Assembly (NCBI GenBank): GCA_037783545.1
Contig: JBBELK010000482.1
Location: forward strand, 1,302,001-1,366,000
DNA length: 64,000 nt
Source of the DNA: Henricia sp. BOLD:AAB3569
Lineage: Eukaryota > Echinodermata > Asteroidea > Spinulosida > Echinasteridae
Direction: 5' to 3'
Below the pieces are notes generated by a model that was given only the letters and a program-made list of their open reading frames with translations, was not told the DNA's origin and did no database searches. Positions 9,801 to 63,664 of the stretch are shown here, one piece after another. Every line of letters begins with the position of its first letter. Position 1 is the first letter of the stretch. The translations under genes were made by a program, and so were the position numbers.

Positions 9801-12800
9801 CAACATGTATGCGAGTGCGCCTTAAGCGGGCCTCCCACTGTGCGATTTTTGCCACGAATTTCCTACGATTGAGTACGATTTGGTACGATTGTGTGTAGAG
9901 TCAATAGACAGTCTCTGGTAATCGTACCAATTCGTGGGAAATTCGTGGCAAAAATCGCACAGTGGGAGGCCCGCTTTATACCCAGGTTTTTACGGTACAC
10001 CCCTTTGGAGCCAAGATATAATTTAATCTTATCCGTTCTTACCTCTCGATCCTTTGCTACTGGGATCATGAAGAGCAGAAGCAGTCACGACAATCCGTGT
10101 TTCTCCAACTTCGGATGCAGTTTTCCTCAAGTCATCCAACAGCAGCAGGGTCAACAAGAAATGACCTAGGTTCAAAGGGTGAAAGAACTGACCTTTTATA
10201 GCTAGGCCAGACAAGAATGTTTTAAGAGACTATACCACTGTGCATTATAGCTCAGCTGGTAGAGCATCTGCCCGGTGAGTCAGAGGTCTCGGGTTCGAAT
10301 CCCGATAAGGCCCTTATGATTTATAATTCCCCCCCCACCCAAGTTTTTTTAATTTTTATTTCAATGGCTAATCGGATTAGGCATTAATCAGATGTTGCAT
10401 TCGTTACTTGGCCCAGTTGCGCCACTATGCAAAACCAAGAGAAAAATTGGGTCCATAGGGAAAACCAGAGGGAGTATACCACTGTGCCTTATAGCTCAGC
10501 TGGTAGAGCATCTGCCCGGTGAGTCAAAAGGTCTCGGGTTCGAATCCCGATAAGGCCCATACAATTTCAAGTATACTCTCCCGAAAAAGAAAAACAATTC
10601 ATAAAATATCAATTATTGATCAGACATAAGTTTGTTGAATACAGTAAACTTGTGGATAACAAGGCACTGATCGACCAATCACTTTGGAATCACTTTCAAG
10701 ACTGTTCTGCTTCAGTGATTTTGGACCTGTTTGAACTTCCTGGGAGAATCCTGCAGTTAAGGGTTCTCGGAATTCCCATTTTGTCGGGTTTTCGAATTGT
10801 TTAAACCTGCATGGGATGAGCTGACCTCTGCAAGTGCACATCTCAAAACAGCCCTAAAACTGCAGGAGCTCAGGAAGGCAGAGTGGTGCACCCTACCTCA
10901 GTGGCTCTTACGGAGGCTGGTGCAGTCAGCCTTGCCACAAGAGGTGTTCATACACCTTACTGACCAATAGAATAGGTTGCATCTCTCCGCCTTTTTGATA
11001 TTTCAGTCAAAGAAAACCTTTTTTTTCCAAGCGTATAATTTCTTTGGAAATACTCATATTGAAAGACTTCAGCAATGGTCAACCAAAAACACACAAATAT
11101 AAACAAACTATATGGAAAAACAACTGAAAAACCTACCCAAATGGTTAGTTCCGAATGTCGTTTCAAAGCCATCCTCAGTTTTAAACGGGCCGAGGCCATT
11201 ACGGAATCCGGTCGTGATTCCAGCGTTGTTACAGAGCACGTGCAGTGGCTTTCCTGAGGCGTGGAATTCGTCCACAAACTGGCGTACTGACTTTAAAGAT
11301 GCAAGGTCCAACTAGAGTGTGCAAAAAAATGACATTTACTTTATTAAAGGAGCGTGTTCAGATTGTAATTTTGAGCCCCCATTTTTTCCCCAAGGGTGTT
11401 GAGATTTTGATACCATGTCATTTGTCATATTTTTCTCATTACCATTCTGAAATTTCGCGCTCTCAATTTGTATATGGGTCATTCCATGAAGTTGAGAAAC
11501 ACAGTTTCCGTGTTACATCCACAACAATTTTTACTTTTTTTTTGCCCTTGATAACCCCATGAATCAATACTATTCAGAAATTCAAGCTGTTGGATGAGGG
11601 AAATTTTAAACATTCATTACTTGTAACAAAATCCTCATGGATTTAAATTTATATGTCAACTAAATAAAATTTTGTTCAAATGTAGGTGTGACATTTGGTG
11701 CTTTTTAGCAGATTTTCTTGAATCACACAGAAATTTAAGCTAGAATCCTCCAAATTCAAAAATAAAAAGAATTGTTAAGTTTGAAAAATGTGTTTATTTC
11801 AAATTCAACATAAAAACATTTGTAGTTGGAGTGAAAGCAGTTGAATTGTATTGGTTTCCAAGTTACATCCACAACCACCACTTTGTTAAATAATTCAAAA
11901 TGGCGGAACTTTGTCAACACTGAAGACTCCCAAATTACCCTCAAACAGTGTAAGCCACCACATCATGCAACATCGTTATATAAATGGTGATTCATTGCTC
12001 TCTTATTGACCATTTTTGTGGAAATGAAGAAATGTCACACTTTGTTCCTCAACTTCATGAAATGACCCATATTTATTCCACAAAGCAGTGCAGTGATTAC
12101 ACCAACCTCTTTGTTTTCACACCAAATTAGAGATTGTAAATTTCCTGTTTTCTTCCCATGGATAGTATTTTGGGGAGGTATTTTATGTGATTGTTAGGTT
12201 AAATTGGAACCCATTTTCTGGAAAAATCTGAACACGCTCCTTTGCACGCTACCTTCATGAACGTCAATTTAGCGCTTGAGTTAGCTCCCGTCAGCGTCTT
12301 GATTGCGTTCTCTGCGTTGGTTTCGTCACGGCACGCCATGATGACATCATAACCAGCTGACGCAAACTTCTCTGCTGCCCGGAGACCCACGCCACGATTG
12401 GCTCCCGTGATGATGCATACTGCTTGGAAGAAAGTTTTATTCGAGAGTTTACGTAAAATTGAAATGGGTATTTGTTCATACTTTGTGAGAACCAACGTTG
12501 ATATAAATTTTTAAACTTGTTTTTTAAATGATGGAAAGAATCTATAACCAAGTCGGATATCACCTTAGGCCTCAAGTACAAAATATGAGTTTTTCCCAAG
12601 TAGGCCTAAAATCATATTTTTTTCCTGCAAAATTTGTTTAAATGTCTGCATAGTTGCCAGGTCCATGACCTCGCCACCCCATTGATGAACAATGGCTGAG
12701 TGATGAATAGGGTGGCGAGGTCACGGACCTGGCGACTATGCCGACGTTTACATTAAATCTGCACTTACTGATGGCTAATTTAGGCAAATTTAAGGAAAAA

Positions 12801-15039: not shown

Positions 15040-15531
15040 TAAAAAACTCCTCAAAAAAAGTTCGGAAAGTCAAGTTTGACTGACGATTTCTCTCTTGTTA
15101 CTAAATCATTTCCCTTGAATTTGGTATCATTGGAAAGCCCCGTTATTCCTCTTTACAGTGATGTGTCATTTGTTATGGTTAATCAATTGGGGGATGTGCA
15201 GTATAGCGGAATACAGGGGTGGGTGGAAAGTGAAATGTCACAAAATTCACTGCTATTGTAATGCAGTGCATTCCCCTTTTGCTTGCAGGATGGGAATGTG
15301 TCAATGCACCTTTTGACAAAAGCAATGCATTTTGTGACATTTCACTTTACACCCACCCTGTATTCAGCTGTGCTGCACATCCCCCAATTGCTTAATCATA
15401 ACAAATGACACATCATCGTAAAGAGGAATAACAGAGCTTTCCAATGATATAACATTCAAGGAAAATTATTTTGCAACAAGAGAGAAATCGTCAGTCAAAC
15501 ATGACTTTCCGAACTTTTTTTGAGGAGTTTA
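15040..15531. mobile_element. 490-bp palindromic MITE, copy 2
   Basis: Same palindrome as 2196-2684, with ends AAACTCCTCAAAAAAAGTTC and its mirror, TA at both sides. Its arms are in the reverse arrangement relative to copies 1 and 3, as expected for a nearly symmetrical element. Confidence 0.88.
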
Positions 15532-15617
15532 TATTTGTGACCTTAACTCATGTATTTTTTTATACATAAGAATAATTTATTATTTGGCTTTCCTTTGATA
15601 TAAAATCCTGTACTGTT

Positions 15618-18940: not shown

Positions 18941-21900
18941 CTGTACAAAGTAAAACAAAAACAGTGTTTTTATTCATGTCGTCCATTTTCTAGGTAAGGG
19001 CTACCAAAGTCACGTGCAGAGAAACCAGTCCCTCAATCAGAAACAAGAGATATTCAGAGTGCTTGGCGCTCGATGCGCATTTGGGTCTTTCCACAGTAAA
19101 AGGGGCATTTTGGCAACACAGACCATATTTTCGAGGAAATACTTTTGTCTGGTCTAAAAATAAAAGAAATAAGTTTAAGTTGTTCTGAAGAGATAACTTA
19201 GGCCCAAAAAGGGTTACAAATAGTGTGACAACATGCCTTTCTAAAAACCCTGTGTACAAATTTCCAATATAACGCTCGTAACTGGGACGGCCTAAAATGT
19301 AACAATTGTCGGTCCCTGTTACGTGCATTATATTGGAAATTTTTACACAGGTGTGACGAGGGGGCAATTTCATAAGGCTCTTTTGCACAAAAATGTTTTT
19401 GCTTTGTAAAAATGGGTTAAAGCAGTCCAAATTGTAAGTCAACGTTGTGTTCTCAGCAAGAGCAGCAGAACACCAGTCAACTGTGATGGGTAATTCCTAA
19501 AATTAGGGGTCCAAAATGTTTGGTGTCCCAGTTACGTACGACACTCTCTGCTTCAAAAATCACCACTTATGACCACAAATTCTCAGTAATGGACTGTGGC
19601 CTGTGATTATAGCAGGGATGTGATTGGATGTTTGAAAAAAAACTGAAATTGCGAGCGCACAGCGTGAAGCCATTACGGCATGGGATTCACAAGGGTCATG
19701 TTTTTTGGCAAAAAACCAGAAAAAAACCTGAAAAATCACATCCCTGTTATAGGGGGCAGCATCATTTTCTTCAATATTTTGTTTTCTGATTCCTGAAAAA
19801 TATTAAAAACTAAAGACCATAAAGGCTTATAATTTACTCCATGGTATTGAATAGGAGTTTGTTGTCCCGGGTTACCTACGCCAATGAAAATTGGCTGTAG
19901 AATGAGTTTGCATTAACCTTGGTGCCAAATATACACAAACATTAAATTTGAGTGGCATTTGTACAAATAAAAATAAATATTTTCTACTGGGAAACCACTT
20001 TCAATCATTAAAAACACTTGGAAATCTTAAAAAGCATGTCACACTTTTGGACCCCTAATTTTGGGAATTACCCTAATACACATCACATACGAGTTTGACT
20101 GTTACCCAATTTTTACAAAACAAACAATTTTGGATTGAGTTTTTTTCCTTCTAAATAGCTTGAAATTGGCCCCAGTACCACTCTTCTTTCGATCTTCGTA
20201 AAGTGAGATTACTAATGATGAATAACTAATCTTCATCAAATGAAGTAATTTCTCTAGTGTGAACAGGATTAACAACACCCTTACCTCTGCTATTTGCCTT
20301 TTAATCTCTATGTTATCTGCCGATAACCGCTGATGTTTTTCTTCGTCTTCTCTGCTAGGCGCGGCAAGCCCCAATGGGTTTTTAGTATATATCCCGTCGG
20401 GGTTCTTGCGAATAAAAAGGATCTGTTTAAAAATTGGTAGACAGAAATTCATAAAAGTTCAAGAAAAAAATACATTTCATGTTTTTACTTCAAGTGGAAG
20501 ACACTTGTAAGCTTCATGCAATTCAGCCTACAGGTTGCGAATTGAAGTTCATTACACCCATTAAAAAAAATAAAAAAATAAATAAATATTCACAAATGAA
20601 CTCCCAAGCGATGTCATTGGATTAAACAGTTAACATGACATTAATTACAATTACAAAATGCTACTCGATGCATGCACAAAAACTAAATGGTGTGGCTAAA
20701 CATACTTGTGACTCGGAAAGGATTCGAACCCAAACCACAGAGGTGAAAAGCAAGTAAAGTACTACTATGCTGACCTGGCCTCTCTCAAAAATACATTCAT
20801 TCGTTGAAATATACAAATAAACAGGTCCACTATCTCACCTTTGGAGCAAATATTAAAATTAGTGTAATAGTTGAACAGAAGATAACTGTGAGGGCAGCAA
20901 AGCCAAAGACTGCGTCCTGCTGACTACGAATGATTACTGTTACTGGCGCTGTAATAATACACAATACCTGTGGGCACAGAACAAAGACAAAAACACGATC
21001 TGTAATGTCTAAATGTTTTAAACAACCATTTGACCAAAAAAGCCTTACTCAAATGAAAGGTATGAATAAGTGATTATTTTTAGGGACTCTGACCTAGGGA
21101 CTGCCGGGGTGAATGAATTTGATACAAATGTTGACAAATGTCCAAATGAGTTTGGGAAATCTGGATGCAGTGAAAAGCAAATTGGCTCCACCGGGATTAG
21201 AACCGCGGACCTTCTGCTTAATGTGCAGACGCCCTACCAATTAAGCCAACTTGTGGTCTCGAATCACAGTAGTGCAGTTGTTCCTCACTAATTGGGATTG
21301 GCTATCACGTGAGCTTAGCAAGCCCTACAGAGGGATAAACCCTTCAATGAGACAACCACCCTTCCCAAAGATCATTTAAGATATGCCGCGGTCCACGGTT
21401 CAAATCCCGGTGGAGCCAAGTTGCTTTTCACTGCATCCAGATTTCCCTAACTCATGGACATTTGTATCAAATAAAAGGTGAAAATGTCTAACTATACAAT
21501 GCAATAAATCTGCCCGAGATATCTTTTTACAAAAAAAGAAAATGATAATTGAAGATGAATTTACATAAATGTGAACAAAACTAGACCCTTGACTGCCGTG
21601 GTATAACGGCTCCATCTTCCATGCACTATAGCCAGGGAACCAGCCTAAGTAGGACAGTGACTTCGCACAATTTGTTGAAAGCATTGACACATCTTTTCAT
21701 TGTTTTCCTGGAATGCAGATTAATTGAGTACAATTTCTATGAATTTCAAAAAAAAATTAAAATCAATTTGTTTTTAAAATTATTCAAAAATCAACAATTT
21801 AAAAATTTACAGAATTAAGACTTGAACTCACGACTCAAAACATTATTTCTATTTTAAAAATATTTAAAAACTCACCGAAACATTGTAAACAGACATGCCG

Positions 21901-33100: not shown

Positions 33101-36100
33101 TGCCCTCACTTGAAACCAAAATTGGAATTTTCCACCCCCCAAAAAATGGCCTTTTCTCAGTCAAATTTGTCACTTTATATTTAAATACATTATCACTTCT
33201 AAATATTTTTACAAAGACATTTACAAGTTTAACATTTTCAATGGGTGTTAGATTCGTCGGCCTTTTTACGAAGTGGCGAAATCCGTAAAAAAACCCACAT
33301 TTTTATTAGCAATTTCTTTTTTGTGTATAATTTGACTTTATTTGGTGTCCTTAACATTTCGAGACTTGAAAATTTGTATTTTTTCTTAATTTCAGAATTT
33401 GCCTAAAACTACGTAACTAATGGGTATGCAAATTTACATTTACGCCACTCATTGAAAAAGATGGTATGTGCATGAATTGCTTTTTCATGAAATGGCATAT
33501 CGCAATACGCCACTTCGTGAAAATGCCACGCGCAGGGCGACATTGTAAATATTATGCGCGCAGTGAAATACAGACAGGGGGAAAAATTCTGTGGTGAATC
33601 ACGCATGGTCGGCATTTTGCGTTTTCACGAAGTGACAAATAAGTTATAAGCTAAAGTTTCTTTAATTAGATAATCAATACAATAAAAAAGTATATAACTC
33701 ATACGCCACTTCGTGAAAAGGCTGACGAATTGTACTCAAACTATAAATTTAACACTTGAAAAAAATCCTATTTTTTTGCCAATGATAATATTTGTGGAAG
33801 ATATATTTGATATTATTTGTAAGTTGGATCGAAATTCATTTTCCTAAAACAATCTGACTAATATTTAAAATTTTTTGGATAATTTAAGTAAAAGACAGAC
33901 TTAAAAAAAACACCAACCTGACTACATTTTATGTCACATGCCGCACATTTGAAATTCAATAACAAATGTATTAGAGTATAAACATAACACAGCACCACGT
34001 TAATCTTTTTGTTCGAGTAAGAAAAAAGCGAAGAGGACCATTATAGAAGAATTTTTGCCCTGACCCGTGACTCCAAGTTGTAGCAATGTTTATTTTAGGC
34101 ATCCGGTATGCAACCTTGTGTACTGATAGATGCCTAACCCAGCAGGCGGATGTTGACCGAAGGCACGGTGTGCAAGATGCCTCCGTCATAATTGGAAGAA
34201 AATTATTTGGTCTGCGTCCAGAGTCAATATTTGGGGGGGGGGGGGGGGGGGGGAGGGGAGGGGGGAATTCCTCGAGTCATATTTGATGTTCTTGGGGTGT
34301 ACATGTACTACTTACTCCTAGGGTTAAAGGAGGGGACAACCCTTGTTCGAATTTATCGACGAATTTAATTTAAAAATATTACCGATGTATTGCCTGGTGC
34401 ATAAACCTTCATGAGAATCAGAGAATCTTGTTTTCAACGTCGGCAACCTAATTAATTTTGATGATAAACTCTGCAACTAATGCAACTGTGTGCTGCGCCA
34501 TATTTGAAATTTTGAAATGGATGACGACGTCAACCATGCAATGATTGCATGGATGACGTCAATATTGATGCCTTGTTTCCCGAGCGCCTAACACTGCACA
34601 AGATGGCGACTTACATGAAGCATACAGAGTTAGGCAACCTTTTGCAAGTGTTGTCCCTTCCTTTAATGGAACCGGAGTTAATGTGGAGTAGTGGTATTTT
34701 CTCCGCCTTCCATCTCTGTGGCCCTGGTTCGACTCCCATCCAGGTCACTGTGTGGATGGGTTCTCAGTCCCTGCATGGTTCCGTGGGTTTTCCCCAATAC
34801 AGAATTGTGTAGGGGTTTTCCTCCCACCTCTAAAACTAAGCATTTCTTCTCTTCACAAGATACTAACTTTTTAATGAGCCGTTATATCAATTATTTCAGA
34901 AGCAAAAAAATGGAACAATTTAAAAAAAAAAAAGGGGGTTTTTTTTCCTCGACATTTTCCATATTAAGCATTTTATTAAATGTCCATACTTTCCCCACTT
35001 CGCAGGTGAAATTTTGTCATTTCATTTTTCTTCTCCAGTCATTTAAAATGTCAACCCCTAGCCCTACACGCGCAGACCACTCGTCAACATGTGACAACGA
35101 ACTCCGATAATGCGCTTCGGCATCTCGCAGAATTGTTCCCGAATCAATACATCCCAGAGCTCAGAACAAAGTAATAAGACAGAGCCCCGCGGAGGAGCAT
35201 AGAGTTCTCTCGTGGGCTTTGAAAGACAATTATGGGGAGAAAAAAGCTACAGGTTCGTAATATACCAAATCGATTTAAACTCCCTCGGAGTGGCACTCTT
35301 GTTTCTGATATTTGTAGTCACTCAAAACTAAATGTATTTTGTCAGGGGAACGGGAACATTTGTGGGATTGGGTGAGAAGCGTAATTTGCTAATCAAGTAT
35401 GAATTGTCAGACTACTTGTTAGAAGAATAGGGTGTGTTTTCACTGCGGGCATCGGCATTTAAACACTTTTTGGCGATGCGTTGGGCAAAACCTGAGCAGT
35501 ATACCACTGTACCTCATAGCTCAGATGGTAGAGCATCTGCCTGGTGTGTCAGAGGTCTTGGGGGAAAACATGAGGGAGTATACCACTGTGCCTCAGCTCA
35601 GATAGAAGAGCATCTGCCTGGTGTGTCAGAGGTCTTGGGGAAACCTGACGGAGTATACCACTGTACCTCAGCTTAGCTGGTAGAGCATCTGCCCAGTGTG
35701 TCAGAGGTCTTGGAGAAAACCTGAGGGAGTATTCCACTGTGCCTCATAGCTCAGAAGGTAGATTGTCTGTCCGGTGTGTCTGAGGTCTTGGGGGAAAACC
35801 TGAGGGAGTATACCACTGTGCCTCAGCTTAGCTGGTAGAGCATCTGCCCAGTGTGTCATAGGTCTTGGGGGAAACCTGAGGGAGTATACCACTGTGCCTC
35901 ATAGCTCAGATGGTAGAGAATCTGCCTGGTATGTCAGAGGTCTTGGGGGAAACCTGAGGGAGTATACCACTGTGCCTCAGCTTAGCTGGTAGAGCATCTG
36001 CCTGGTGTGTCATAGGTCTTGGGGGAAACCTGAGGGAGTATACCACTGTGCCTCATATCTCAGCTGGTAGAGCATCTGCCTGGTGTGTCAGAGGTCTCGG

Positions 36101-39100
36101 GTCTGAATCCCGATGACCCCCATATGATATTTTTTTCTAGTTCATGTTTGGTTATTTAAATCTCATGATGATTAGGCACCATACCAAATATTTTGAGTGT
36201 TTCGTAGTTTAAGTGTCTAAGATTTGGTGAAAATTGTCAAATTTTCCCGCTCCCCCTTTTCTCCCAATATTTTTATTTGAATAACCACTTTAATCAGCTT
36301 TTACCCACACATAAAGGACATCCACACAAAATTGCAGGCTGGAAAGTTGGGAGTAGAACTCTAAAATGTTTTTGGGAAAAAATCTATACCCATGCTTCCG
36401 CCGTTTTGGGCACATGAACAAAAAAGCCACATGAACAGAGCATGCCTGGATGCTATTTTTGCAGCTTATTACGTGGAGTAGGTTTATTTTTCCACCTAAA
36501 ACAATCCCAGAGGGTCTGATTTTCCTCTGGAGCATGGCACACGGGTCGTCGGAAAATGTGCATGTACTTCCGCGAGCGTGAGGACAATAGTCAATAGCAA
36601 TTACATTACGCTACCCCGGGATCACTGCGCTTGGCAGCTGTTGAGTGTGTGCCTAAGTCAATACGAAAGTGCTCTTTCGTTTTGCCCATTTTTACGCAGA
36701 AGAGGAAATTAAGTCTTGTTCCCTGCCTCTGCCTAGGGTTTTTGGGTGTATGCCAGTCCGTGTCTCCTTGGAGTATCGTGACCTTTCGACCTTTGTGGTC
36801 AACTGTCTTTTTCAGATTTTTTCTCTTTAATTCTGTACATAAAACCTTGTTACTTTACCCATTTGGAAATCTACAGTGTGCAAAACCGAGAGAAAAATTT
36901 GGTTCTTAGAGAAAAATTTGGTTCTTAGAGAAACCCGAGGGAGTATACAACTGTGCCTCATAGCTCAGCTGGTAGAGCATCTGCTCAGTGTATCAGAGGT
37001 ATTGGGGGAACCCTGAGGGAGTATACCACTGTGCCTCATAGCTCAGATGGTAGAGCATCTGCCTGGTTTGTCAGAAGCCTTAGGGAAAACCTGAGAGAGT
37101 ATACCACTGTGCCACATAGCTCAGATGGTAGAGCATCTGCCTGGTGTATCAGATGTCCTGCGGACAACCCGAGGGAGTATACCACTGCCTTATAGCTCAT
37201 CTGGTAGAGCATCTGCCTGGTGTGTCAGAGGTCTTGGGGGAAACCTGAGGGAGTATACCAATGTGCCTCATAGCTCAGATGGTAGAGCATCTGCCTGGTG
37301 TATCAGATGTCCTGGGGACAACCTGAGGAAGTATACGACTGTGCCTCATAGCTCGGCTGGTAGAGCATCTGCTCAGTGTATCAGAGGTCTTGGGGGAAAC
37401 CTGAGGAAGTACACCACTGTGCCTCATAGCTCAGATGGTAGAGCATCTGCCTGGTGTATCAGATGTCCTGGGGACAACCTGAGGAAGTATACGACTGTGC
37501 CTCATAGCTCGGTTGGTAGAGCATCTGCTCAGTGTATCAGATGTCCTGGGGACAAACTGAGAAAGTACACGACTGTGCCTCATAGCTCAGCTGGTAGAGC
37601 AACTGCCCAGTGTACCAGAGGTCTCTGGTTCAAATCCCGGTGAGGAACTTGTGGCTTTTCAGTCAACTCCTTCACAATGTACGTTTTTAGTTATTCTATT
37701 AATCAAGGGTAAAATTGTCCCTCTCCCCCGAACACAAATTTAAACAAAATAGCTAAACTAAAGTTAAATAAAAAAGGAATAAAAAATACCTTAAATCTTA
37801 CGACTTTTGGTAAGTATACAGTTGGGAACATTAATATAACGCATATTAATAGAATCACTATAAAAACATGTACACCGCATGATAAATGCATCTTATTACA
37901 TTGATGTATGATGTGAAAACATTCTTGCTTTCAAACACAACACGGGACAGCACAGTTAAAATAAGGTCCCCAAGAGAACAAATATACTCAACGAAATGCA
38001 CTTCTCATTTCAAATTAATGAGGGAAGTTGAAATGTTAAAGCACTTTGCGATCTGAAAAGTGCACAACCCTTTTAAAATACTTTTATTATTTATTCTAAC
38101 TTGGGACGTTTATTTTCTCAACTTAGTGTTTTTACAATTACCATAGTTTCTTTCAAGCCATTTCATGAATTTAATTTTGTGTTTTGATATATATTTTAAG
38201 TTGTATCTGTAACTTTTATATGGAACATGCACATGTACATAGTATGCAAACGCAAAACCGCACATGCCCGGAAACAAATCTGACACAGTGCGACAAAAAG
38301 CTTAAGTAAAGTTTACCCAGGCTGTGTGTGTGCATGGGCATACAACATGCGTGCAATGCGTGTAGCATGCGCGATCGAACAAAAACAACTCGACACACAG
38401 CACACTTTGAACAAACGTGACACATGTAGCTAGGAAAAAATACGCTGCAAAAATGTTGAAACAGCGAAGTTTATAGTCAAACAATTTCAGCAAGTTTTAC
38501 TGATTTACATATAAAAAGTTATTTATGAATGGAAATAAAAGTTGGTTTGGCTGGTCTTATAACAATTAAAACCGGCTGGGGATCTGGATGCTTATAATGG
38601 CCCTTGCCTTGTGACTCGAGCAAAACAGCCTCCAGGTCCCTAGCTGGTTTTTAATACACAGTTTAAGACCGTTCAAATCCATTTTTATTCCGTAAGTGTA
38701 GAATGACCAACTTACCCGGCCATTTAACTGGAATAAGCCACGTCAAGTTGTCTTGCAGCGAATCATAATAAGCGATCTTGTGGTATTTACCGTCTGAAAA
38801 ATAGAAATTAATTATGCATAATTTAATTGTCGTTACGATTTACTACAAAATTAAAAATTGTGTAAAGGGGGAAAATATTGGTTGAATAAACAAATTGTGT
38901 CATAAATGAAATCGTATGGACTGACACACTAATCACTTTATTTTATATTGTCAAAGTTGATCGCTGTAGGATTCGAACTGGCCATTTGACACTGGCAAGT
39001 TCGGTGGTCAGATGGTTAGGATGTCTGATGTAGAATGCAGGAGGTCCTCAGTTCGAATTCCACCCGAGCACACAAGTTTTTTAGCTTGTGTCTTGTGAGA

Positions 39101-46802: not shown

Positions 46803-46960
46803 GGCCCCAAGTCAAGTCAAGTTGCCTTCGAGTCCCAAGTCAAGTCAAGTTAATTGCCTTCGAGTTCCAAGTCAAGTCAAGTCAAACTGCCTTCAAGTCC
46901 CAAGTCAAGTCAAGTCAAGTCAAGTCAAGTCAAGTCAAGTCAAGTCAAACTGCCTTCGAG
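46803..46960 (+). repeat. AAGTC minisatellite, part 1
   Basis: Arrays of CAAGT / AAGTC pentamers with spacer CTGCCTTCGAGTCCC. Continues after a SINE tail at 47213. Confidence 0.9.
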
Positions 46961-47212: not shown

Positions 47213-47815
47213 TCAAGTCAAACTGCATTCGAGTCCCAATTGAGTCAAGTCAAGTCAGGTATATTGGTCAAGTCAAGTAGTCACGACAGTGAATTTGTTC
47301 AAGCCAATTTCAAAATGAGTCTAAACACAAACTCGCATTGATCATGTTGCTCTGGCCAAGGATTCTTTAGTGCTGAAATACAATTCGGTCCCCAAAATTC
47401 ATAAAAGATATATTTTATTTTTGGCAGACCCAAGTCAAAAAGTCTGAGTCAAGCCAAGTCATTTGAGGTTCGAGTCTCAAGTCAAGTCAAGTCAAGTCAT
47501 TTGAGATTGGAGTCTCAATTAAGTCAAGTCATTTGAGATTGTTGTCTCAAGTCAAGTCAAGTCATGTCATTTGAGGTTCGAGTCTCAAGTCAAGTCATTT
47601 GAGATTGGAGTCTCAAGTCAAGTCAAGTCATTTGAGGTTCGATTCTCAAGTCAAGTCAAGTCATTTGAGGTTCGAGTCTCAAGTCAAGCCAAGTCATTTG
47701 AGGTTCGAGTCTCAAGTCAAGCCAAGTCATTTGAGGTTCGAGTCTCAAGTCAAGACAAGTCAGTGAAAATCGGGAATCGAGTCGACTCGAGTCTCGAGTC
47801 CGAGTCATTACAACC
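47213..47815 (+). repeat. AAGTC minisatellite, part 2, with higher-order unit
   Basis: A unit of about 30-38 bases (TCATTTGAGGTTCGAGTCTC + AAGTCAAGTCAAG) repeats about ten times at 47460-47770. The 103-residue frame 47571-47882 is a by-product. Confidence 0.9.
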
Positions 47816-50562: not shown

Positions 50563-51055
50563 TAAACTCCTCAAAAAAAGTTTGGAAAGTCAAGTTTGAC
50601 TGACGATTTCTCTCTTGTTGCAAAATAATTTTCCTTGAATTTTATATCATTGGAAAGCCCCGTTATTCCTCTTTACGATGATGTGTCATTTGTTATGATT
50701 AAGCAATTGGGGGATGTGCAGCACAGCTGAATACGGGGGCGGGTGTAAAGTGAAATGTCACAAAATGCATTGCTATTGTCAAAAAGTGCATTGACACATT
50801 CCCATCCTCCAAGCAAAAGGGGATTGCACTGCATGACAATAGCAGTGGATTTTGTGACATTTCACTTTCCACCCTCCCCTGTATTCCGCTATACTGCACA
50901 TCCCCCAATTAATTAATCATAACAAATGACACATCACTGTAAAGAGGAATAACAGGGCTTTCCAATGATACCAAATTCAAGAGAAATGATTTAGTAACAA
51001 GAGAGAGAAAACGTCAGTCAAACTTGACTTTCCGAACGTATTTTTGAGAAGTTTA
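50563..51055. mobile_element. 490-bp palindromic MITE, copy 3
   Basis: Same element as 2196-2684, including AAGCAATTGGGGGATGTGCA and mirrored right arm; TA on both sides. Confidence 0.88.
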
Positions 51056-51059
51056 TTTC

Positions 51060-51829: not shown

Positions 51830-52140
51830 GGAATTATGACCTAAGGACTGCCGGGGTGAATAATGTGAAAACAAATGTGTCCATGCGATCGAGTTTGGGA
51901 AATCTGGATGCAGTGAAAAGCAACTTGGCTCCACCGGGATTCGAACCGCAGACCTCCCGCTTAACGTGCAGATGCCCCACCAATTAAGCTATGAAGTCAA
52001 CTGGTGGTCTCGAATCACGGTATTGCAGTTGTTCCTCACTGATTGGGATTGGCTATCACGTGAGCTTAGCGAGCCCTACAGAGGGATAAACCCTCCGAAG
52101 AGATAACCACCCCTCCCAGAGATCACTTAAGATACACCTC
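51830..52140 (-). mobile_element. SINE family D, fuller copy
   Basis: Minus head around 51925-52000 (AGCTTAATTGGTGGGGCATC, B box GGTTCGAATCCC) with body GTTTGGGAAATCTGGATGCA on plus. Flank shared with 21240-21380. Confidence 0.75.
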
Positions 52141-52985
52141 AAACCCCCTGCCCGGCTTGCCCCAATTATTATATGTCCGCAAAATTGATATATGTACACT
52201 CCGGGGCGAGTTCACTTTGGGGCGAGTTCACTCTGGGGCGATCCCCACCCCCTCCCCCCGGAAAGTTGGTCCCGGGGACGGTTGTTCTAGACTGAAAAGA
52301 GGCCTTATTTGTCCACCCTCAATCTCCGAATAGGCCCCCCTCACCCCTTCCCAAAAATTGTTGGACTACTGACAACAAACAAACATGTGACATTGGCAAT
52401 ATGCCAGCATTTGCAACCATTCAATATCTTCAAAATAACTTTCCACCATGCACCATAACACAGCATGATACTGCATTGCTAGTTGACAGTATGCATCTTA
52501 CTATACGAAGCAACTCTATGCCAAGAATTTACGGAACTCTAACTGGAATTATCCTGGGTATACTGTACATTCCTGATAGTTACAAAGATTGATCGTGTCC
52601 TGTGTGATAAACCGTAAAGCCCCATTACATCATTTGCAGTGACTCAAAGTTTTACTCCGAAAGACGGAAAGAAAAATAGACAATTTGATAGCAATGGTCA
52701 CAATCACCTAGTCTCGTACCCCGATCAACTGGGGATGCTCGCCCATCAGGTCTGGGGAATATCACGATGAGAGCTCATATGTGGCTGACATTTCTATAAG
52801 GCAGTTTATTAACATTGCTCTTTAGTATTGTCAATTTGTTCCCGTTTTTAAAAGTTTCCCAATTATGCAATGTGTCTTTAAAAGTACAACAAATCAATGA
52901 CTGTTCAAAAGAGATGAACACAACATCTGGCATGGTGCCTAATCACCATTGAAATGAAACAACCAAACTTGGGATGAGAGAAAAA
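52141..52985. other. Repeat scraps only
   Basis: GGGGCGAGTTCAC repeats at 52203-52240 resemble 28080 and 43600; 52785-52880 resembles the ATGTGGCTGA MITE. No exon. Confidence 0.5.
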
Positions 52986-52989
52986 TCGT

Positions 52990-53165
52990 AAGGGCCTTAT
53001 CGGGATTCGAACTTTAGACCTCCGACTCACTAGGCAGATGCTCTACCAGCTGAGCTATAAGGCACAGTTGGTATAGGGATAACCTGAGGGAGTATACCAA
53101 CTGTGCCTTATAGCTCAGCTGGTAGAGCATCTGTCTAGTGAGTGAGTCAGAGGTCTTGGACAAAA
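52990..53165. repeat. Head-to-head pair of tRNA-like units
   Basis: A minus unit with B box (GGGATTCGAACTTTAGACC on plus) is followed by a plus unit (TGTGCCTTATAGCTCAGCTG) that lacks the B box. Same family as the satellites at 35495 and 36930. Confidence 0.8.
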
Positions 53166-53518
53166 CTGATGTTACTTTAATTGCTCAGTAAAATTTGTCA
53201 AGCCTTTGGTTTAAATCCGTTGGCAAATGAAAAAGTTATTTATGATCAAAGTAGGACCTTTTTTTCTTTTCACAAAAAAAAGAGACAAGTGCCTGTCTCC
53301 AAGGTCAATATGACACGATGAGCAGCTGCAACATCAGTCACATAATATTAAATTCCTGTCTCTGAAATCTAGCCCCCTTTGGGCTCGACTTGAGATGCTC
53401 CGAGTGTCTGAAATTCTGCAAAATTACAGAGCACTTTTTTGCCCACTGACATCTGAATAAGAACATATGGTAAGAAATGTCAACAGTTTTGCAACAATGC
53501 AAATAGTGTTTTAAAGAA

Positions 53519-54779: not shown

Positions 54780-55360
54780 AGTTTTGTAAAAAAAATAAAT
54801 AATAATAATTTTTATTTTTACAAATTTTGAGTGGTAAATTTTAACTGTTGACTTTTCAGTAGTCCAACTAAAGAATTTTGGCACGTGCGGCTGGTCTAAA
54901 ACGAACATCTCTTGGAAAATAAAGCAGGGAAAAAAATCACTGCGGCTCCTTTTAACCATTCCGACAAACATCGTTGTAATTAAAATTTACCCCACACGAA
55001 CCTTACTTTCAAAGAATGAGACACCTAAACATCAATCATTAATTTGGAAACAAAAATTCCGTCCTTTCAATTCGCAAACGGGCTGCACCAATTATCAAAG
55101 ACTAATTAGAGCATACATAGTTCCTGAATTCTATTAGGCAAAGACCAATGACAAATGCCGACGTTTTATTAACCCGACATTCCATTTTTAACAAGGACAA
55201 CACGTTTTCATTATTTCAAATGCTAGATGTGATTTGATGGCAGACGGGTAACGAGGAAATGCGGGGGATGTTAGAAAAATGCGCTAATAAGCTTATTAAA
55301 ATAGAAAGGAATTCTGGATAAAAATGGAAAACAGTCATTAACAAAACTGGATACAGATTT
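54780..55360. other. Nothing recognised
   Basis: A/T-rich; no exon or repeat identified. Confidence 0.4.
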
Positions 55361-55368
55361 GGACAAAT

Positions 55369-55826
55369 CGTCGCTGTCACCACGAAGTGACACCCAAGTG
55401 AACTTCAGTTACAGTTCGTGAAAACCGCACAGTGTGGGGGACACAAGTTTTCACGAACTGACATCCAAGTGTGCGCGCGCACTCCGTACACTGCACCAAA
55501 AGCCATGAATTTTTGTTTCCACGAACTGACACCCAAGAAAACGTTAAATTTATCCGAAAAAAAGCCTTGAAAATGCTTGATACGAATGATATCATCTGAA
55601 TACTTGTAGAATAATAGTAAAATATTTACCGCAACAATCCCTAATTAGTTAATTTACGATGGGTGTCAGTTCGTGAAAACAAAAATTCATGGCTTTTGGT
55701 GCAGTGTACGGAGTGCGCGCGCACACTTGGATGTCAGTTCGTGAAAACTTGTGTCCCCCACACTGTGCGGTTTTCACGAACTGTAACTGAAGTTCACTTG
55801 GGTGTCACTTCATGGTGACAGCGACG
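55369..55826. mobile_element. 458-bp element with very long near-perfect inverted arms
   Basis: Left arm 55369-55534 and right arm about 55661-55826 pair almost perfectly, from CGTCGCTGTCACCACGAAGT inward. AAAT occurs on both sides (55365-55368 and 55827-55830). The spacer is 126 bases. CACGAACTGACACCCAAG-like motifs repeat inside each arm. It interrupts the tail of a SINE (55835-55950). Confidence 0.9.
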
Positions 55827-55950
55827 AAATGTCCATGAGTTCGGGAAATATGGATGCAGTGAAAAGCAACTTGGCTCCACCGGGATTCGAACCGCGGACC
55901 TTCTGCTCAATGTGCAGACGCCCTACCAATTGAGCTATGAAGCCAACTGG
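55827..55950 (-). mobile_element. SINE family D, copy next to the long inverted repeat
   Basis: Minus tRNA-like head GGCTTCATAGCTCAATTGGT with B box GGTTCGAATCCC and tail TTGCTTTTCACTGCATCC. T-stem and U33 mismatches show that it is not a functional tRNA. Confidence 0.78.
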
Positions 55951-59259: not shown

Positions 59260-60757
59260 CAAACTTTTTCCAAAGAGAAAAAAAACCAAAAAATCATCTG
59301 ACATGTCCATTCCCAATCGAATACCAACAATATTTTACAGTGTTGACCACTTCAAATGATGACTAAAAGTAATAGGAAAAACGAAAGTGTTAAATGCACG
59401 GTACGATCACACGAGCTCTGCGATCTGCAGGGTATAATATTGATTTGTTCATCGGTATCGTAATGCTAGCTTGCGATGGCGCATTGATAGTGTGACATCT
59501 GGCGACTGTGTGCCGAGGCTTCGCGCAAATAGTAAGTGAAAACGCCGACTTGCAGATGGTGAGCGCGCAAACCGGAGTGTAATTTGATGCCAGTTTGATG
59601 TTTGCGCTGGAAACGGCCGATTTAACACCGGGGGAAAAGAATCCTCAAAATTTAAGGCTGGCAAGTGACAGAGACTTTTGTACAGAGTGACAGAATTAAC
59701 TTTTTGCGCGTAAACTTTACATAATGTCTTGCACCCCGAATTCTTCACTTTCAAATGGAGGTGCAGTTTTGCAAGTCACATACTATGCTGTTGTTACTAC
59801 AAGATGCATGCCAATTTTAAACAGCGCCCTCTTTCTGTGATTTTTTGAGAAGAATTTGTTCAAAGTTGAAAAATGATACTTCTATTTATTTTACACCAAA
59901 ATGAATATTAGTAATGTTTTCCTAAACAAAAAATCCTTCATTATGTTGCAAAGACTGTGCATATAAATTTACTATTTCAGGGGCCCTTGTTTGGCCTACT
60001 TGTTTGGTAATTACCCTCCAAAAAAATTTCTGAATTATTATCTTTAAGCTTACTTGTTATAAAGATGGTAATGGTAGTAATCATCCTGTGAAATTATTTC
60101 GTCTGAATTGCCCCCATTCATGAGAAAAATGACAAAACTATTTGAATCTCCAAAGATCGCCTGTAGGCAATCTTTGGAGCCATTCATTTATGCACAAAAA
60201 CAGTACTTGGATTTTTCGGGTTTTCTAAAGTATTACTGCATCTATGTGGCTGAAATTTCTACAAAGTAGTTTTCTCGACCTATGCTTTCAATTACTAGTG
60301 GAAATCATGCCGTTTTTAATAGTTTACCAAACAAGTATACTACCTTTAAAGATTTGATAACAATGTCATTTTTGCCTTGCTGCACATGCTTGGGCATGTG
60401 TTGCATTATCTACATGTTGTCAGTTTTCCCTTTTGCTATTTTATCAGAGTAAACACACATTTTGTTAATTATTTTCTACATTATAAAAATATTAATTTAT
60501 TTATTTTTACAAAGCACCCTTAAATTAAAAGGAAAAGATTTTTCTAACATTTCGGATGAGGAAAAAACAAATATGGATTCGAGACCTCCGACTTACCAGG
60601 CAGATGACTGATGGCCATTCGCGCATGCGGACTGCGGACTTGCCGTTTGCGTAATGTGACCCGAGTGCAATGCGCACGCATTACTCCCGAGTAACGGGAA
60701 CTGCACGCCCGAACGCAGCCAGGAAGAAAAATTCAGGGTCATTGCAAATGATACAGG
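59260..60757. other. Nothing recognised apart from MITE fragments
   Basis: 60180-60360 resembles the ATCTATGTGGCTGAAATTTC family ending TATACTACCTTTAAA. No exon. Confidence 0.45.
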
Positions 60758-61249
60758 TGTGACCAGACCAACTACCTGGTCAGGTCACTAGCATTAACAT
60801 TCCTTAGGTATATCACAATAACATTCCAGTACCTCTGCTGGGTGCATGTCTTGCGCCATTTTACAATTGTCTTCCTTGTGGCAAGACTGCACCCCGGCAT
60901 GTGCTGGAATGTGCATTTTAGGTTTATTGTATTCTGGCAGGCTTGGAATTCCTGGGTTGGGACTGGAGAGCCTATATAAGGAACCTGTGGGCAAGCCTGG
61001 GGAGTTCCCCTGTTCTGACTGCGTGTGCATGAGCCGTAGGCCTATAGTGCTGCTCTGATCTCTGTATAGTGCAATAACTTCAGCATAATTTGATTCCGGT
61101 TTTCACAAGTGTTTTAAAATTGGAATTGTTGTGATAAATACACATTGTATTTTTTTATTCATATTTTGGCTTGAGCCAGTTCTCTTTTGTACATCGTCGT
61201 CAGCGTTGGCCCTGCCTGTTTCCTGTATTACCAGACCCACTTGGTTACA
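60758..61249 (+). repeat. LTR A
   Basis: 492 bases, TG...CA, TATATAAG at 60973-60980. Differs from LTR B at only a handful of positions. Confidence 0.88.
60973..60980 (+). promoter_or_regulatory. LTR TATA box
   Basis: CCTATATAAGGAACC, identically placed in the three LTRs; probable promoter for the element. Confidence 0.6.
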
Positions 61250-61262
61250 AAAATTGTTCTTT

Positions 61263-61278
61263 AAAATCAGGGGGTGAG
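61263..61278 (+). other. Polypurine tract between LTR A and LTR B
   Basis: AAAATCAGGGGGTGAG, identical to 63138-63153 just before LTR C. Here it directly follows LTR A without an interior. Confidence 0.7.
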
Positions 61279-61770
61279 TGTGACCAGACCAACTACCTGG
61301 TCAGGTCACTAGCATTAACATTCCTTGGGTATATCACAATAACATTCCAGTACCTCTGCTGGGTGCATGTCTTGCGCCATTTTACAATTGTCTTCCTTGT
61401 GGCAAGACTGCACCCCGGCATGTGCTGGAATGTGCATTTTAGGTTTATTGTATTCTGGCAGGCTTGGAATTCCTGGGTTGGGACTGGAGAGCCTATATAA
61501 GGAACCTGTGGGCAAGCCTTGTGAGTTCCCCTGTTCTGACTGCATGTGCATGAGCCGTAGGCCTATAGTGCTGCTCTGATCTCTGTATAGTGCAATAACT
61601 TCAGCATAATTTGATTCCGGTTTTCACAAGTGTTTTAAAATTGGAATTGTTGTGATAAATACACATTGTATTTTTTTATTCATATTTTGGCTTGAGCCAG
61701 TTCTCTTTTGTACATCGTCGTCAGCGTTGGCCCTGCCTGTTTCCTGTACAACCAGACCCACTTGGTTACA
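61279..61770 (+). repeat. LTR B
   Basis: 492 bases, near-identical to LTR A. It serves as 3' LTR of the A-B pair and 5' LTR of the B-C pair. Confidence 0.88.
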
Positions 61771-61772
61771 AT

Positions 61773-61790: not shown

Positions 61791-63137
61791 AGGGCCAAAC
61801 GATGTACAAACTTGAAAATTATTGTGAATAAAATATTTCTGAAAACGGTAGTCGAAATACTTGTGGTGTTGACTGACTGGATGCCTGCTTCGCTTTGATC
61901 GGGCGATCAAGACTGGTCGGGACCATTTGCGGAATGCAGAGGAACTGGAACATCGCTGGAAAGTCTACTTGAGGTCTGGTTGAAAATGACGTGGATCTAC
62001 CGGGCCTACTACTTGACGTCCAACTCGTCTTTAGGAGTTCAGAGCACAGGGCAGCACTATGGCAATAATGCACACAGCTAAGTTTTAAATTAATAGCAGT
62101 CGGGACAGGAAACTCGAATTTTAACCATTTTGATGTATGTGTATTTGTTATTGTAATTGTTAAAATGGTGCACCTTGTCTAAATGTCGTTTGTATAATTG
62201 TTCGTCTATTTAAAATTTGTATTTTCTTTATTTACAGAAATTCCATAGCGGACTGCGACTCGTGCACAACTGAATTCCAGACCTGCCAGACATGTTCGTA
62301 TTGAACATTTATTTAAAATATTTATATACCACATACCGTAATACGTTCAGGTGTAAAATACCTTCATTTGTATTGCTCGCCGTGAATGTTTTAATTACAT
62401 GTACATATCAGCAAATGAAAATGGGTCTTTTTATGAAGGACAGTCCTTCGACCCACTGGTTATAGTTATGAATCGGTTTTACCTATATGGTTAAACTACG
62501 AGTGTGGTATATCGTTTTCTCATTGAACCATGTCTCCTAGTACCTGTCTGTGGGAACTGGCCAGCCCACTTCGGCGAGAGGGCATTTGGTTGGTCATTTG
62601 ATCAATTGTAAGAATATTTTTTAAATACATATTTTGTGGCCATTAATTCTTGTAATTTACAAGAAATGGTAATTATTCTTTTGTGGTCTATAATTTGACC
62701 GTTTGAGATTACTGATTTTTAAATTCAATGTGAAGCCAGATTTGTAGCAAATTTTGGACTAGGTGTCATTCAGGCCGAATTGAGAAGGTTTTATGTACTA
62801 TGTCTATTTTGAGATAATCTCGTTTTTCCAGGGAAATCCTGGGGTAGATCGATGGTATGGTGCCTTCTCGACCTTATATAATGCACCTGATATCTCCAGA
62901 ATCCATGCAGGTTGAAATGGTTTTTATCTATGTAACATCTTTCCATTTAAAAAATATAAAGAACTATAAATTATTTATTTCATGTTCAATTAACACTTGA
63001 TATAAGCTCGTTTATCAGTAAATACTGAGATGGTCTGTTGAGCATGTGACATGATGGGAATTTAAATTGTGTATTTTGGCAAAATGATATTGAATTTTCC
63101 ATCCTTCTTTTGTTAAACATACAACAATTTGTTCTTT
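61791..63137 (+). other. LTR element interior without coding capacity
   Basis: A/T-rich, many stops on all frames, no aspartic protease, YxDD or integrase motif. Probably an internally deleted element. Confidence 0.7.
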
Positions 63138-63153
63138 AAAATCAGGGGGTGAG
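63138..63153 (+). other. Polypurine tract before LTR C
   Basis: AAAATCAGGGGGTGAG directly before TGTGACC, the expected plus-strand priming site. Confidence 0.7.
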
Positions 63154-63664
63154 TGTGACCAGACCAACTACCTGGTCAGGTCACTAGCATTAACATTCCT
63201 TAGGTACCCGTATATCACAATAACATTCCAGTACCTCTGCTGGGTCCATGTCTTGCGCCATTTTACAATTGTCTTCCTTGTGGCTAGACTGCACCCCGGC
63301 ATGTGCTGGAATGTGCATTTTAGGTTTATTGTATTCTGGCAGGCTTGGAATTCCTGGGTTGGGACTGGAGAGCCAGCAGGGTCCTATATAAGGAACCTGT
63401 GGGCAAGCCTTGTGAGTTCTCCTGTTCTGACTGCATGTGCATGAGCCGTATGCCTATAGTGCTGCTCTGATCTCTGTAGACTAGTGCAATAACTTCAGCA
63501 TAATTTGATTCCGGTTTTCACAAGTGTTTTAAAATTGGAATTGTTGTAATAAATACACATTGTACTTTTTTATTCATATTTTGGTTTGAGCCAGTTCTCT
63601 TTTGTACATCGTCGTCAGCGTTGGCCCTGCCTGTTTCCTGTATTACCAGACCCACTTGGTTACA
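63154..63664 (+). repeat. LTR C
   Basis: 511 bases; longer than A and B because of small insertions (for example GCAGGGTCC before the TATA region). It has AATAAA where A and B have GATAAA. Confidence 0.86.

What the first reader, a model, noticed from the sequence alone, without database searches (positions are those of the whole stretch)
35495..37650. Satellite arrays made of tRNA 5' halves with a T-arm only in the final unit
Seen: 8 and 9 head-to-tail units of about 75-79 bp, each a tRNA D-arm plus anticodon half (TAGCTCAGATGGTAGAGCAT) and the linker GAGTATACCACTGTGCC. Only the last unit of each array regains box B (GTTCAAATCCC-like). Solo full units occur at 10231 and 10476, and a head-to-head pair at 52990. 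Inference: repeated unit gain occurred upstream of one complete tRNA-like gene, by replication slippage or repeated template switching. Every unit keeps an A box while only one B box remains per array, which raises the question of Pol III use, chromatin barrier activity or readthrough transcripts carrying tandem tRNA 5' halves.
Basis: partly seen in the sequence, partly recalled or inferred. Interest (0 to 1): 0.8.

Follow-up and report, generated by a model that had tools for sequence, protein, structure and literature searches.

The report
Multi-headed tRNA-derived SINE arrays
The two arrays are copies of a short mobile element, common in what looks like a starfish genome, whose tRNA-like front part has been repeated many times while its back part stays single; this is a new, abundant variant of the known SINE-derived satellites.

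Summary
Two head-to-tail arrays (8 and 9 units, spacing 75-78) lie at 35487-36119 and 36930-37647, and only the last unit of each has a T arm. They are neither a tRNA cluster nor isolated. The genome (740.7 Mb; asteroid-like mtDNA) holds a dispersed tRNA-derived SINE-like family. Single-headed copies have a leader, a tRNA-like head and a body with a preferred 3' end. Multi-headed copies repeat leader plus tRNA 5' part (78 bp, A box, no B box). The unit junction occurs 10,286 times at up to 3 mismatches of 38 (reversed-pattern control 0). In sampled loci 423 of 430 internal units are of the junction type without T arm. The junction has a private state (GTCTT in 363 of 368 scored internal units), so it probably arose once, by a GGG microhomology, and spread. 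Terminal units are not significantly more diverged than internal ones, so arrays seem about as old as their insertions; some later changed by whole units. The architecture matches SINE-derived satellites of squamates (PMC10702118), with differences. Transcription was not tested; copy starts at a plausible Pol III start site are suggestive only.

The parts
35487..36022 (+). array 1: seven internal head units (leader + tRNA-like 5' part, no T arm)
36023..36119 (+). array 1 terminal unit with a (degenerate) T arm
36120..36200 (+). SINE trailer/body after array 1 (T-run, then ..GATGATTAGGCACCATACCAAATATT)
36847..36929 (+). 5' leader region upstream of array 2, partly shared with 10438-10458
36930..37549 (+). 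array 2: eight internal head units
37550..37647 (+). array 2 terminal unit with T arm / B box GGTTCAAATCCC
37648..37699 (+). remnant of SINE body after array 2
10217..10458 (+). single-headed copy: head, T arm, body, next leader (long unit of about 232 bp)
10459..10567 (+). second single-headed copy in direct tandem; leader GGG (10458) to T-stem GGG (10536) = 78 bp, the array period
52901..53075 (-). single-headed copy with body, minus strand
53078..53169 (+). head-to-head partner without T arm (end resembles an internal unit, truncated)

Best explanation
The arrays are multi-headed copies of a tRNA-derived SINE-like retroelement. An ancestral copy underwent one tandem duplication between a GGG in its leader (TAGGGAAAACC) and a GGG in the T stem of its tRNA-like head (TCGGGTTCG), 78 bp apart. 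Every upstream head therefore ends where the next leader begins, and only the last head keeps T arm, B box, T-run and body. Multi-headed elements then spread to many sites, most likely by LINE-type retroposition. The number of heads (2 to more than 30) changes by whole units and by blocks of units through slippage or unequal exchange. Shown: anatomy, genome-wide recurrence, the constant junction, one clear whole-unit length difference, no significant age difference between terminal and internal units. Inferred: single origin of the junction, retroposition, and transcripts that start at an upstream A-box-only head.
For: Shared body, leader and head with single-headed copies. Junction 10,286 times, control 0. 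Internal units of junction type 297 of 302 and 126 of 128; last units of runs (single-headed runs included) with T arm 48 of 51, and 8 of 10 plus L111 by eye. GTCTT in 363 of 368 scored internal units (44 unscored), against C 17/T 13 in terminal units of arrays (13 unscored) and C 33/T 5 in last units of 1-2-headed sources (4 unscored). Terminal units not significantly farther from consensus than internal ones (farther in 22 of 38 loci, p 0.21). A preferred 3' end: 27 of 79 ends at trailer-consensus position 81-91. Flanking direct repeats above chance (score 8 or more in 8 of 82, 1.6 expected; permutation p of the mean score 0.0012), e.g. 12 bp at L089 and at L101 13 bp by eye, 11 bp by script. 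L010/L011: flanks 696/698 and 792/794 identical, 6 against 5 units, the others matching one to one. L033/L041/L043 share the 3' flank at 98-99% with 22, 19+ and 33+ units.
Against: Direct repeats are clear in a minority of loci only; the count at score 8 or more is borderline (4 of 79, 1.3 expected, p 0.05). 36 of 79 copies end earlier, at trailer position 0-57. No partner LINE was sought or found. In 2-headed sources the internal unit has GTCTT 5 times and GTCTC 5 times, so the junction state is not uniform there. Mean distance of terminal units (0.099) is above that of internal ones (0.075), not significantly (p 0.21; against middle units p 0.07). The T-run after the terminal T arm (TTTT within 30 nt in 60 of 88) should stop Pol III before the body, yet copies contain the body. 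Sampled by array-type 3' end, only 1 of 10 ends had a multi-headed array. L039 and L110 have no terminal T arm. Acceptor-stem pairing is no better than shuffled (5.82 of 7 against 5.74, shuffle maximum 5.92).
Confidence: 0.72

Rival explanations
1. Local satellite growth: single-headed SINE copies at many places turned into arrays independently by replication slippage or unequal crossing-over, as in ordinary minisatellites.
For: Two-unit or seven-unit periodicity in the window arrays and in L020, L033, L041; one-unit difference L010/L011; units within a locus slightly more alike than between loci (0.885 against 0.866; above the between-locus mean in 28 of 37 loci); GTCTC in 5 of 10 scored internal units of 2-headed sources.
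Against: The same break points at the sampled loci and the private GTCTT state in arrays of 3 or more heads. Little shared history inside a locus: median excess of shared differences 0.23, against 0.09 between loci. Terminal unit not significantly older than the array.
Confidence: 0.22
2. Reverse-transcriptase jumping: during each insertion the growing cDNA end (copy of GGGAAAACC) re-pairs with GGG in the T stem and recopies the head, adding units on the spot.
For: Predicts the architecture, near-star unit relations and similar age of array and terminal unit.
Against: Fresh jumps from a T-type head should give TCTCGGGAAAACC. The usual junction is TCTTGGGGGAAACC (exact matches). It could still act on an already multi-headed RNA.
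Confidence: 0.2
3. Dispersal of internal units as circular DNA that recombined into existing single-headed copies.
For: Internal units form many short dispersed arrays.
Against: It predicts terminal units older than internal ones; the difference is in that direction but not significant (22 of 38, p 0.21).
Confidence: 0.06
4. A real tRNA gene cluster, collapsed or misassembled.
For: Solo heads score as tRNA; the assembly has what looks like a mitochondrial concatemer.
Against: Internal units stay far below the tRNA gathering score; the junction pattern matches at thousands of dispersed places, and fetched loci have different flanks.
Confidence: 0.01

Closest known systems
SINE-derived satellites (sSats) of squamate reptiles, PMC10702118 (abstract and sections Background, snake Squam3, Variation of orthologous loci, Discussion read)
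   Same: Tandem repeats made of a portion of a tRNA-related SINE, mostly with a longer terminal unit that runs on to the SINE end; alternating unit variants; most orthologous loci equal or one unit different; thousands of loci in most snakes.
   Different: Snake unit is 67 nt, contains box B and part of the body; here 78 bp of leader plus head with box A and no box B. Snake loci reach hundreds of units and are more homogeneous when longer; here 2 to more than 30 units in the sampled loci, with little homogenisation. Here the host is probably a starfish.
tRNA-like amphibian tandem families (Hy/PolIII, OAX/satellite I, Rana/PolIII, PolIII/TAN), as summarised in PMC10702118 Background and table passages of PMC9659126
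   Same: Tandem repeats containing a tRNA-related region; box B said to be missing in Hy/PolIII.
   Different: Units of about 200-360 nt, or longer for OAX; the link to a SINE is judged inconclusive in PMC10702118.
PcH-sat of Patella caerulea, related to a Nin-SINE, PMC11121367 (abstract and outline read)
   Same: Invertebrate satellite with a SINE-like segment.
   Different: 179-bp unit, about 10% of the genome, mainly pericentromeric.
Dimeric SINEs and SINE multimers (Alu, Dip; PMC10702118 Discussion)
   Same: Several heads in one element or tandem.
   Different: Alu is a dimer and Dip tandems are of full-length SINEs; here only the front part repeats, many times.

Membership tests
tRNA-derived SINE | tRNA-like head with A and B box | tested here: met
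   Window solos 40.4 and 42.0 bits. Of 10 fetched sources, 9 have tRNA matches of 27.0-48.5 bits, 6 reach the gathering score of 29, L013 has none
tRNA-derived SINE | interspersed, many copies with unrelated flanks | tested here: met
   1,145 matches of the single-head pattern and 355 of the array-type end, controls 0; flanks mostly differ between fetched loci
tRNA-derived SINE | target-site duplications | tested here: inconclusive
   Above chance in aggregate, clear in a minority
tRNA-derived SINE | 3' end shared with a partner LINE | not tested
   27 of 79 copies share a 3' end region; no LINE search was run
tRNA-derived SINE | transcribed by Pol III | not testable with these tools
   No RNA or ChIP data
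SINE-derived satellite (sSat) | tandem repeat of a portion of a SINE | tested here: met
   (as far as the element is a SINE)
SINE-derived satellite (sSat) | longer terminal unit reaching the SINE end | tested here: met
   T arm in 48 of 51 last units of runs, single-headed runs included; 8 of 10, plus L111 by eye; L039 and L110 lack it
SINE-derived satellite (sSat) | homogenisation of units, stronger in long arrays | tested here: inconclusive
   Within 0.885 against between 0.866; no test against array length
SINE-derived satellite (sSat) | subtelomeric preference | not tested
   Contigs bear numbers only; positions along chromosomes unknown
tRNA gene cluster | each unit a complete tRNA | tested here: not met
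   Internal units at most about 17 bits, gathering score 29

The most novel reading that the evidence does not exclude
A SINE lineage in which the promoter head itself is a mobile, copy-number-variable tandem array: upstream A-box-only heads start multi-head Pol III transcripts by using the one distant B box of the last head, so head number is a heritable, evolving promoter-strength or RNA-length trait. Support: 8 of 84 sampled copies start at head position 16-18, about 10-12 nt upstream of the tRNA-like sequence, five of them arrays of 6-12 heads; in ten further loci two alignments start at 16-17, both single-headed, one beside an inverted copy.
Probability: 0.28. Interest if true: 0.65.

Novelty: new variant of a known kind. 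Interest (0 to 1): 0.5.

Why it matters
[quoted passage not shown] This is a large case in what looks like an echinoderm, with a different part of the element (A box, no B box) repeated and many small dispersed arrays that differ in head number. It offers natural constructs with known head numbers for asking how a Pol III promoter with many A boxes and one B box behaves, and for separating tandem growth during retroposition from growth afterwards.

Tried and rejected
tRNA cluster or misassembly: rejected. Coding: one frame of the unit is open (26 aa per unit; 182-aa stop-free frame 37095-37640), but 164 of 438 unit spacings are not multiples of three; rejected. Hammerhead or another known RNA: at gathering scores only tRNA matches in the window; in ten fetched loci the non-tRNA matches are below their gathering scores. 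Selection on the acceptor stem: not above shuffled. A-box conservation in internal units (mismatch 0.042) is no clearer than in the TATACCACTGT part of the leader; not used. Position-specific inheritance of units: penultimate with penultimate 0.862, about the between-locus mean 0.866; not seen. Exact patterns were not found in the viral contigs or the prokaryote genomes; no other eukaryote genome could be searched. Pfam on ten window ORFs: one weak deoxyhypusine synthase match below the curated cut-off. Rows dropped: one search leaves out loci with fewer than 4 full units and L039, L110 and the window (two arrays in one stretch); leave out copies too close to a stretch end.
Full report
What was checked. 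The window lies in a 740.7-Mb genome of 2,104 contigs. A 16,221-bp mitochondrial contig carries cox1. By eye, from its open frames and tRNAs, nad4L, cox2, cox3, nad3, nad4 and nad5 lie on the same strand, nad1 and nad2 on the other, and tRNA-Phe is at the start. From memory this is the order of asteroids (starfish); the species was not identified.

Observation. Both arrays are as described: 8 units (35487-36099) and 9 units (36930-37625), spacing 75-78 bp. The T arm is present only in the last units; in array 1 it is itself degenerate (GGGTCTGAATCCCG). As tRNA, three internal units reach 17 bits, the terminal ones 22.2 and 27.5, the solo ones at 10 kb 40.4 and 42.0; the gathering score is 29.

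What the unit is. Self-comparison and alignment of the solo copies show a larger element: leader (GGGAAAACCTGAGGGAGTATACCACTGT), tRNA-like head with a 7-bp acceptor stem (GCCTTAT/ATAAGGC in most single-headed copies), then T-run, body and a preferred 3' end. Single-headed copies also occur as direct tandems of about 232 bp and as head-to-head pairs. The array unit is leader plus head up to the T stem. In the solo copy at 10459 the distance from the leader GGG to the T-stem GGG is 78 bp, which is the array period. A duplication between these two GGG runs makes this unit and leaves T arm and body on the last head only.

Genome-wide. The 38-nt junction pattern (up to 3 mismatches) occurs 5,382 + 4,904 = 10,286 times, reversed-pattern control 0. 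A 52-nt pattern of the single-headed 3' part occurs 1,145 times and the 38-nt end of the array subfamily 355 times, both with control 0. The patterns differ in sensitivity: in my sampled loci the junction pattern finds 246 at 3 mismatches and 422 at 9; the array-type end 13 at 3, 66 at 6 and 101 at 9. Ratios of the raw counts are therefore not head numbers.

Samples. (i) 39 loci, the other places, fetched. Together with the window they have 302 internal units: 297 of junction type, 4 unclear, 1 weakly T-like in the mixed locus L034. Of 51 last units of runs, single-headed runs included, 48 have a T arm and 3 are unclear; one of these three, L039, has none on reading. (ii) 10 loci taken from the exact junction matches: 3 to 24 units, 126 of 128 internal units of junction type and 2 unclear; last units 8 T, L111 T by eye, L110 none. 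(iii) 38 loci of the single-headed type from the listing, not all of that listing. (iv) 10 loci taken by best match to the array-type 3' end: only 1 of 10 ends carries a multi-headed array (4 heads); L114 has 11 unit matches on the other strand of the same stretch. Multi-headed copies thus look like a minority of that subfamily. Samples (i) and (ii) are biased towards arrays by construction.

One junction. In sources with 3 or more full units, 363 of 368 scored internal units have GTCTT before the G-run (44 unscored). Terminal units of arrays have C 17 and T 13 (13 unscored), last units of 1-2-headed sources C 33 and T 5 (4 unscored). In 2-headed sources the internal unit has T 5 and C 5. Independent duplications of single-headed copies would be expected to give GTCTC and fewer Gs. 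I read the pattern in the longer arrays as one founding event; the 2-headed ones may include others. This is an inference.

When arrays arose. Units within a locus are hardly more alike than units of different loci (0.885 against 0.866; 37 loci), and most differences are private to one unit (median excess 0.23). Terminal units are not significantly farther from consensus than internal ones (22 of 38 loci, means 0.099 and 0.075, p 0.21; against middle units p 0.07). Arrays were therefore probably multi-headed at, or soon after, insertion. Later change is also visible. L010 and L011 have nearly identical flanks and 6 against 5 units, with the rest matching one to one; whether they are alleles or duplicates is not known. 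L033, L041 and L043 share a 3' flank at 98-99% but have 22, at least 19 and at least 33 units; L041 and L043 are cut by the end of the fetched stretch. The window arrays and L020 alternate by two units.

Retroposition. For: dispersed sites; the preferred 3' end (27 of 79 at trailer position 81-91); variable 5' starts; direct repeats such as 12 bp at L089, 13 bp by eye at L101 and an 11-bp imperfect one at L046, a six-headed array. In aggregate the repeats exceed mismatched pairs (8 of 82 against 1.6 expected; mean-score permutation p 0.0012, but count at score 8 or more 4 of 79 against 1.3, p 0.05). Many loci show none, and 36 of 79 copies end earlier in the trailer (0-57), so this step is supported but not proven.

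Starts. Of 84 copies, 8 start at head position 16-18, about 10-12 nt before the tRNA-like sequence: L014 (12 unit matches), L111 (8), L036 (7), L040 (7), L046 (6), L028 (4, in two runs), L037 (2), L075 (1). In L111 a remnant of leader further upstream cannot be excluded. After removing two duplicates, a uniform null reaches 8 at this site in 0 of 4,000 trials and in any 3-bp window with p 0.002; a smooth null gives p 0.002 at the site and about 0.09 in any window. In ten new loci two alignments start at 16 and 17, one of them next to an inverted copy. That is where a tRNA-type gene would start (recalled). If so, an A-box-only head can start a multi-head transcript. Against it, the T-run after the last T arm (60 of 88) should end Pol III transcripts before the body.

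Known systems. PMC10702118 describes the same architecture in squamates and states that restriction to squamates is uncertain. Nine paper searches, of which I saw the listings, showed no report of such arrays in an echinoderm; the library holds open-licence papers only. The finding is a new variant of SINE-derived satellites, not a new category.

Noticed in passing
L069, L082, L086, L087, L088, L091, L096, L097; window 52901-53169: Copies of the element often sit as head-to-head inverted pairs about 0-26 bp apart; L101 has an inverted 5' piece inside a direct repeat of 11-13 bp, as twin priming or cDNA fold-back would give.
   Followed up: partly
L063-L102, long-model positions 80-106: Several copies start in the upstream body close to the 3' end of the preceding tRNA-like head (six of 84 starts at -127 to -133), as if precursor RNAs were cut or reverse transcription stopped there.
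   Followed up: partly
51926-51998 and 55872-55944 (-), 21060-21463: A second repeat family with a tRNA-like head; pieces of about 110-334 bp match at 85-93%.
   Followed up: no
2193-2683, 15044-15532, 50563-51056, 55360-55835: Large palindromes of about 480-500 bp (arms 83-85% alike); the first three are copies of one another at about 95%.
   Followed up: no
60757-61249, 61278-61771, 63120-63664: Three direct copies of a stretch of about 500 bp, 94-99% identical.
   Followed up: no
46808-46957 and 47447-47762: CAAGT-type tandem repeats, periods 5, 65 and 33.
   Followed up: no
37095-37640 (+): 182-aa stop-free frame through array 2 with a 26-aa period, because the 78-bp unit is a multiple of three; array 1 has spacings of 75-78.
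   Followed up: yes
G000 contig C955: cox1 three times at 16,221-bp steps: it looks like a mitochondrial concatemer in the assembly.
   Followed up: no
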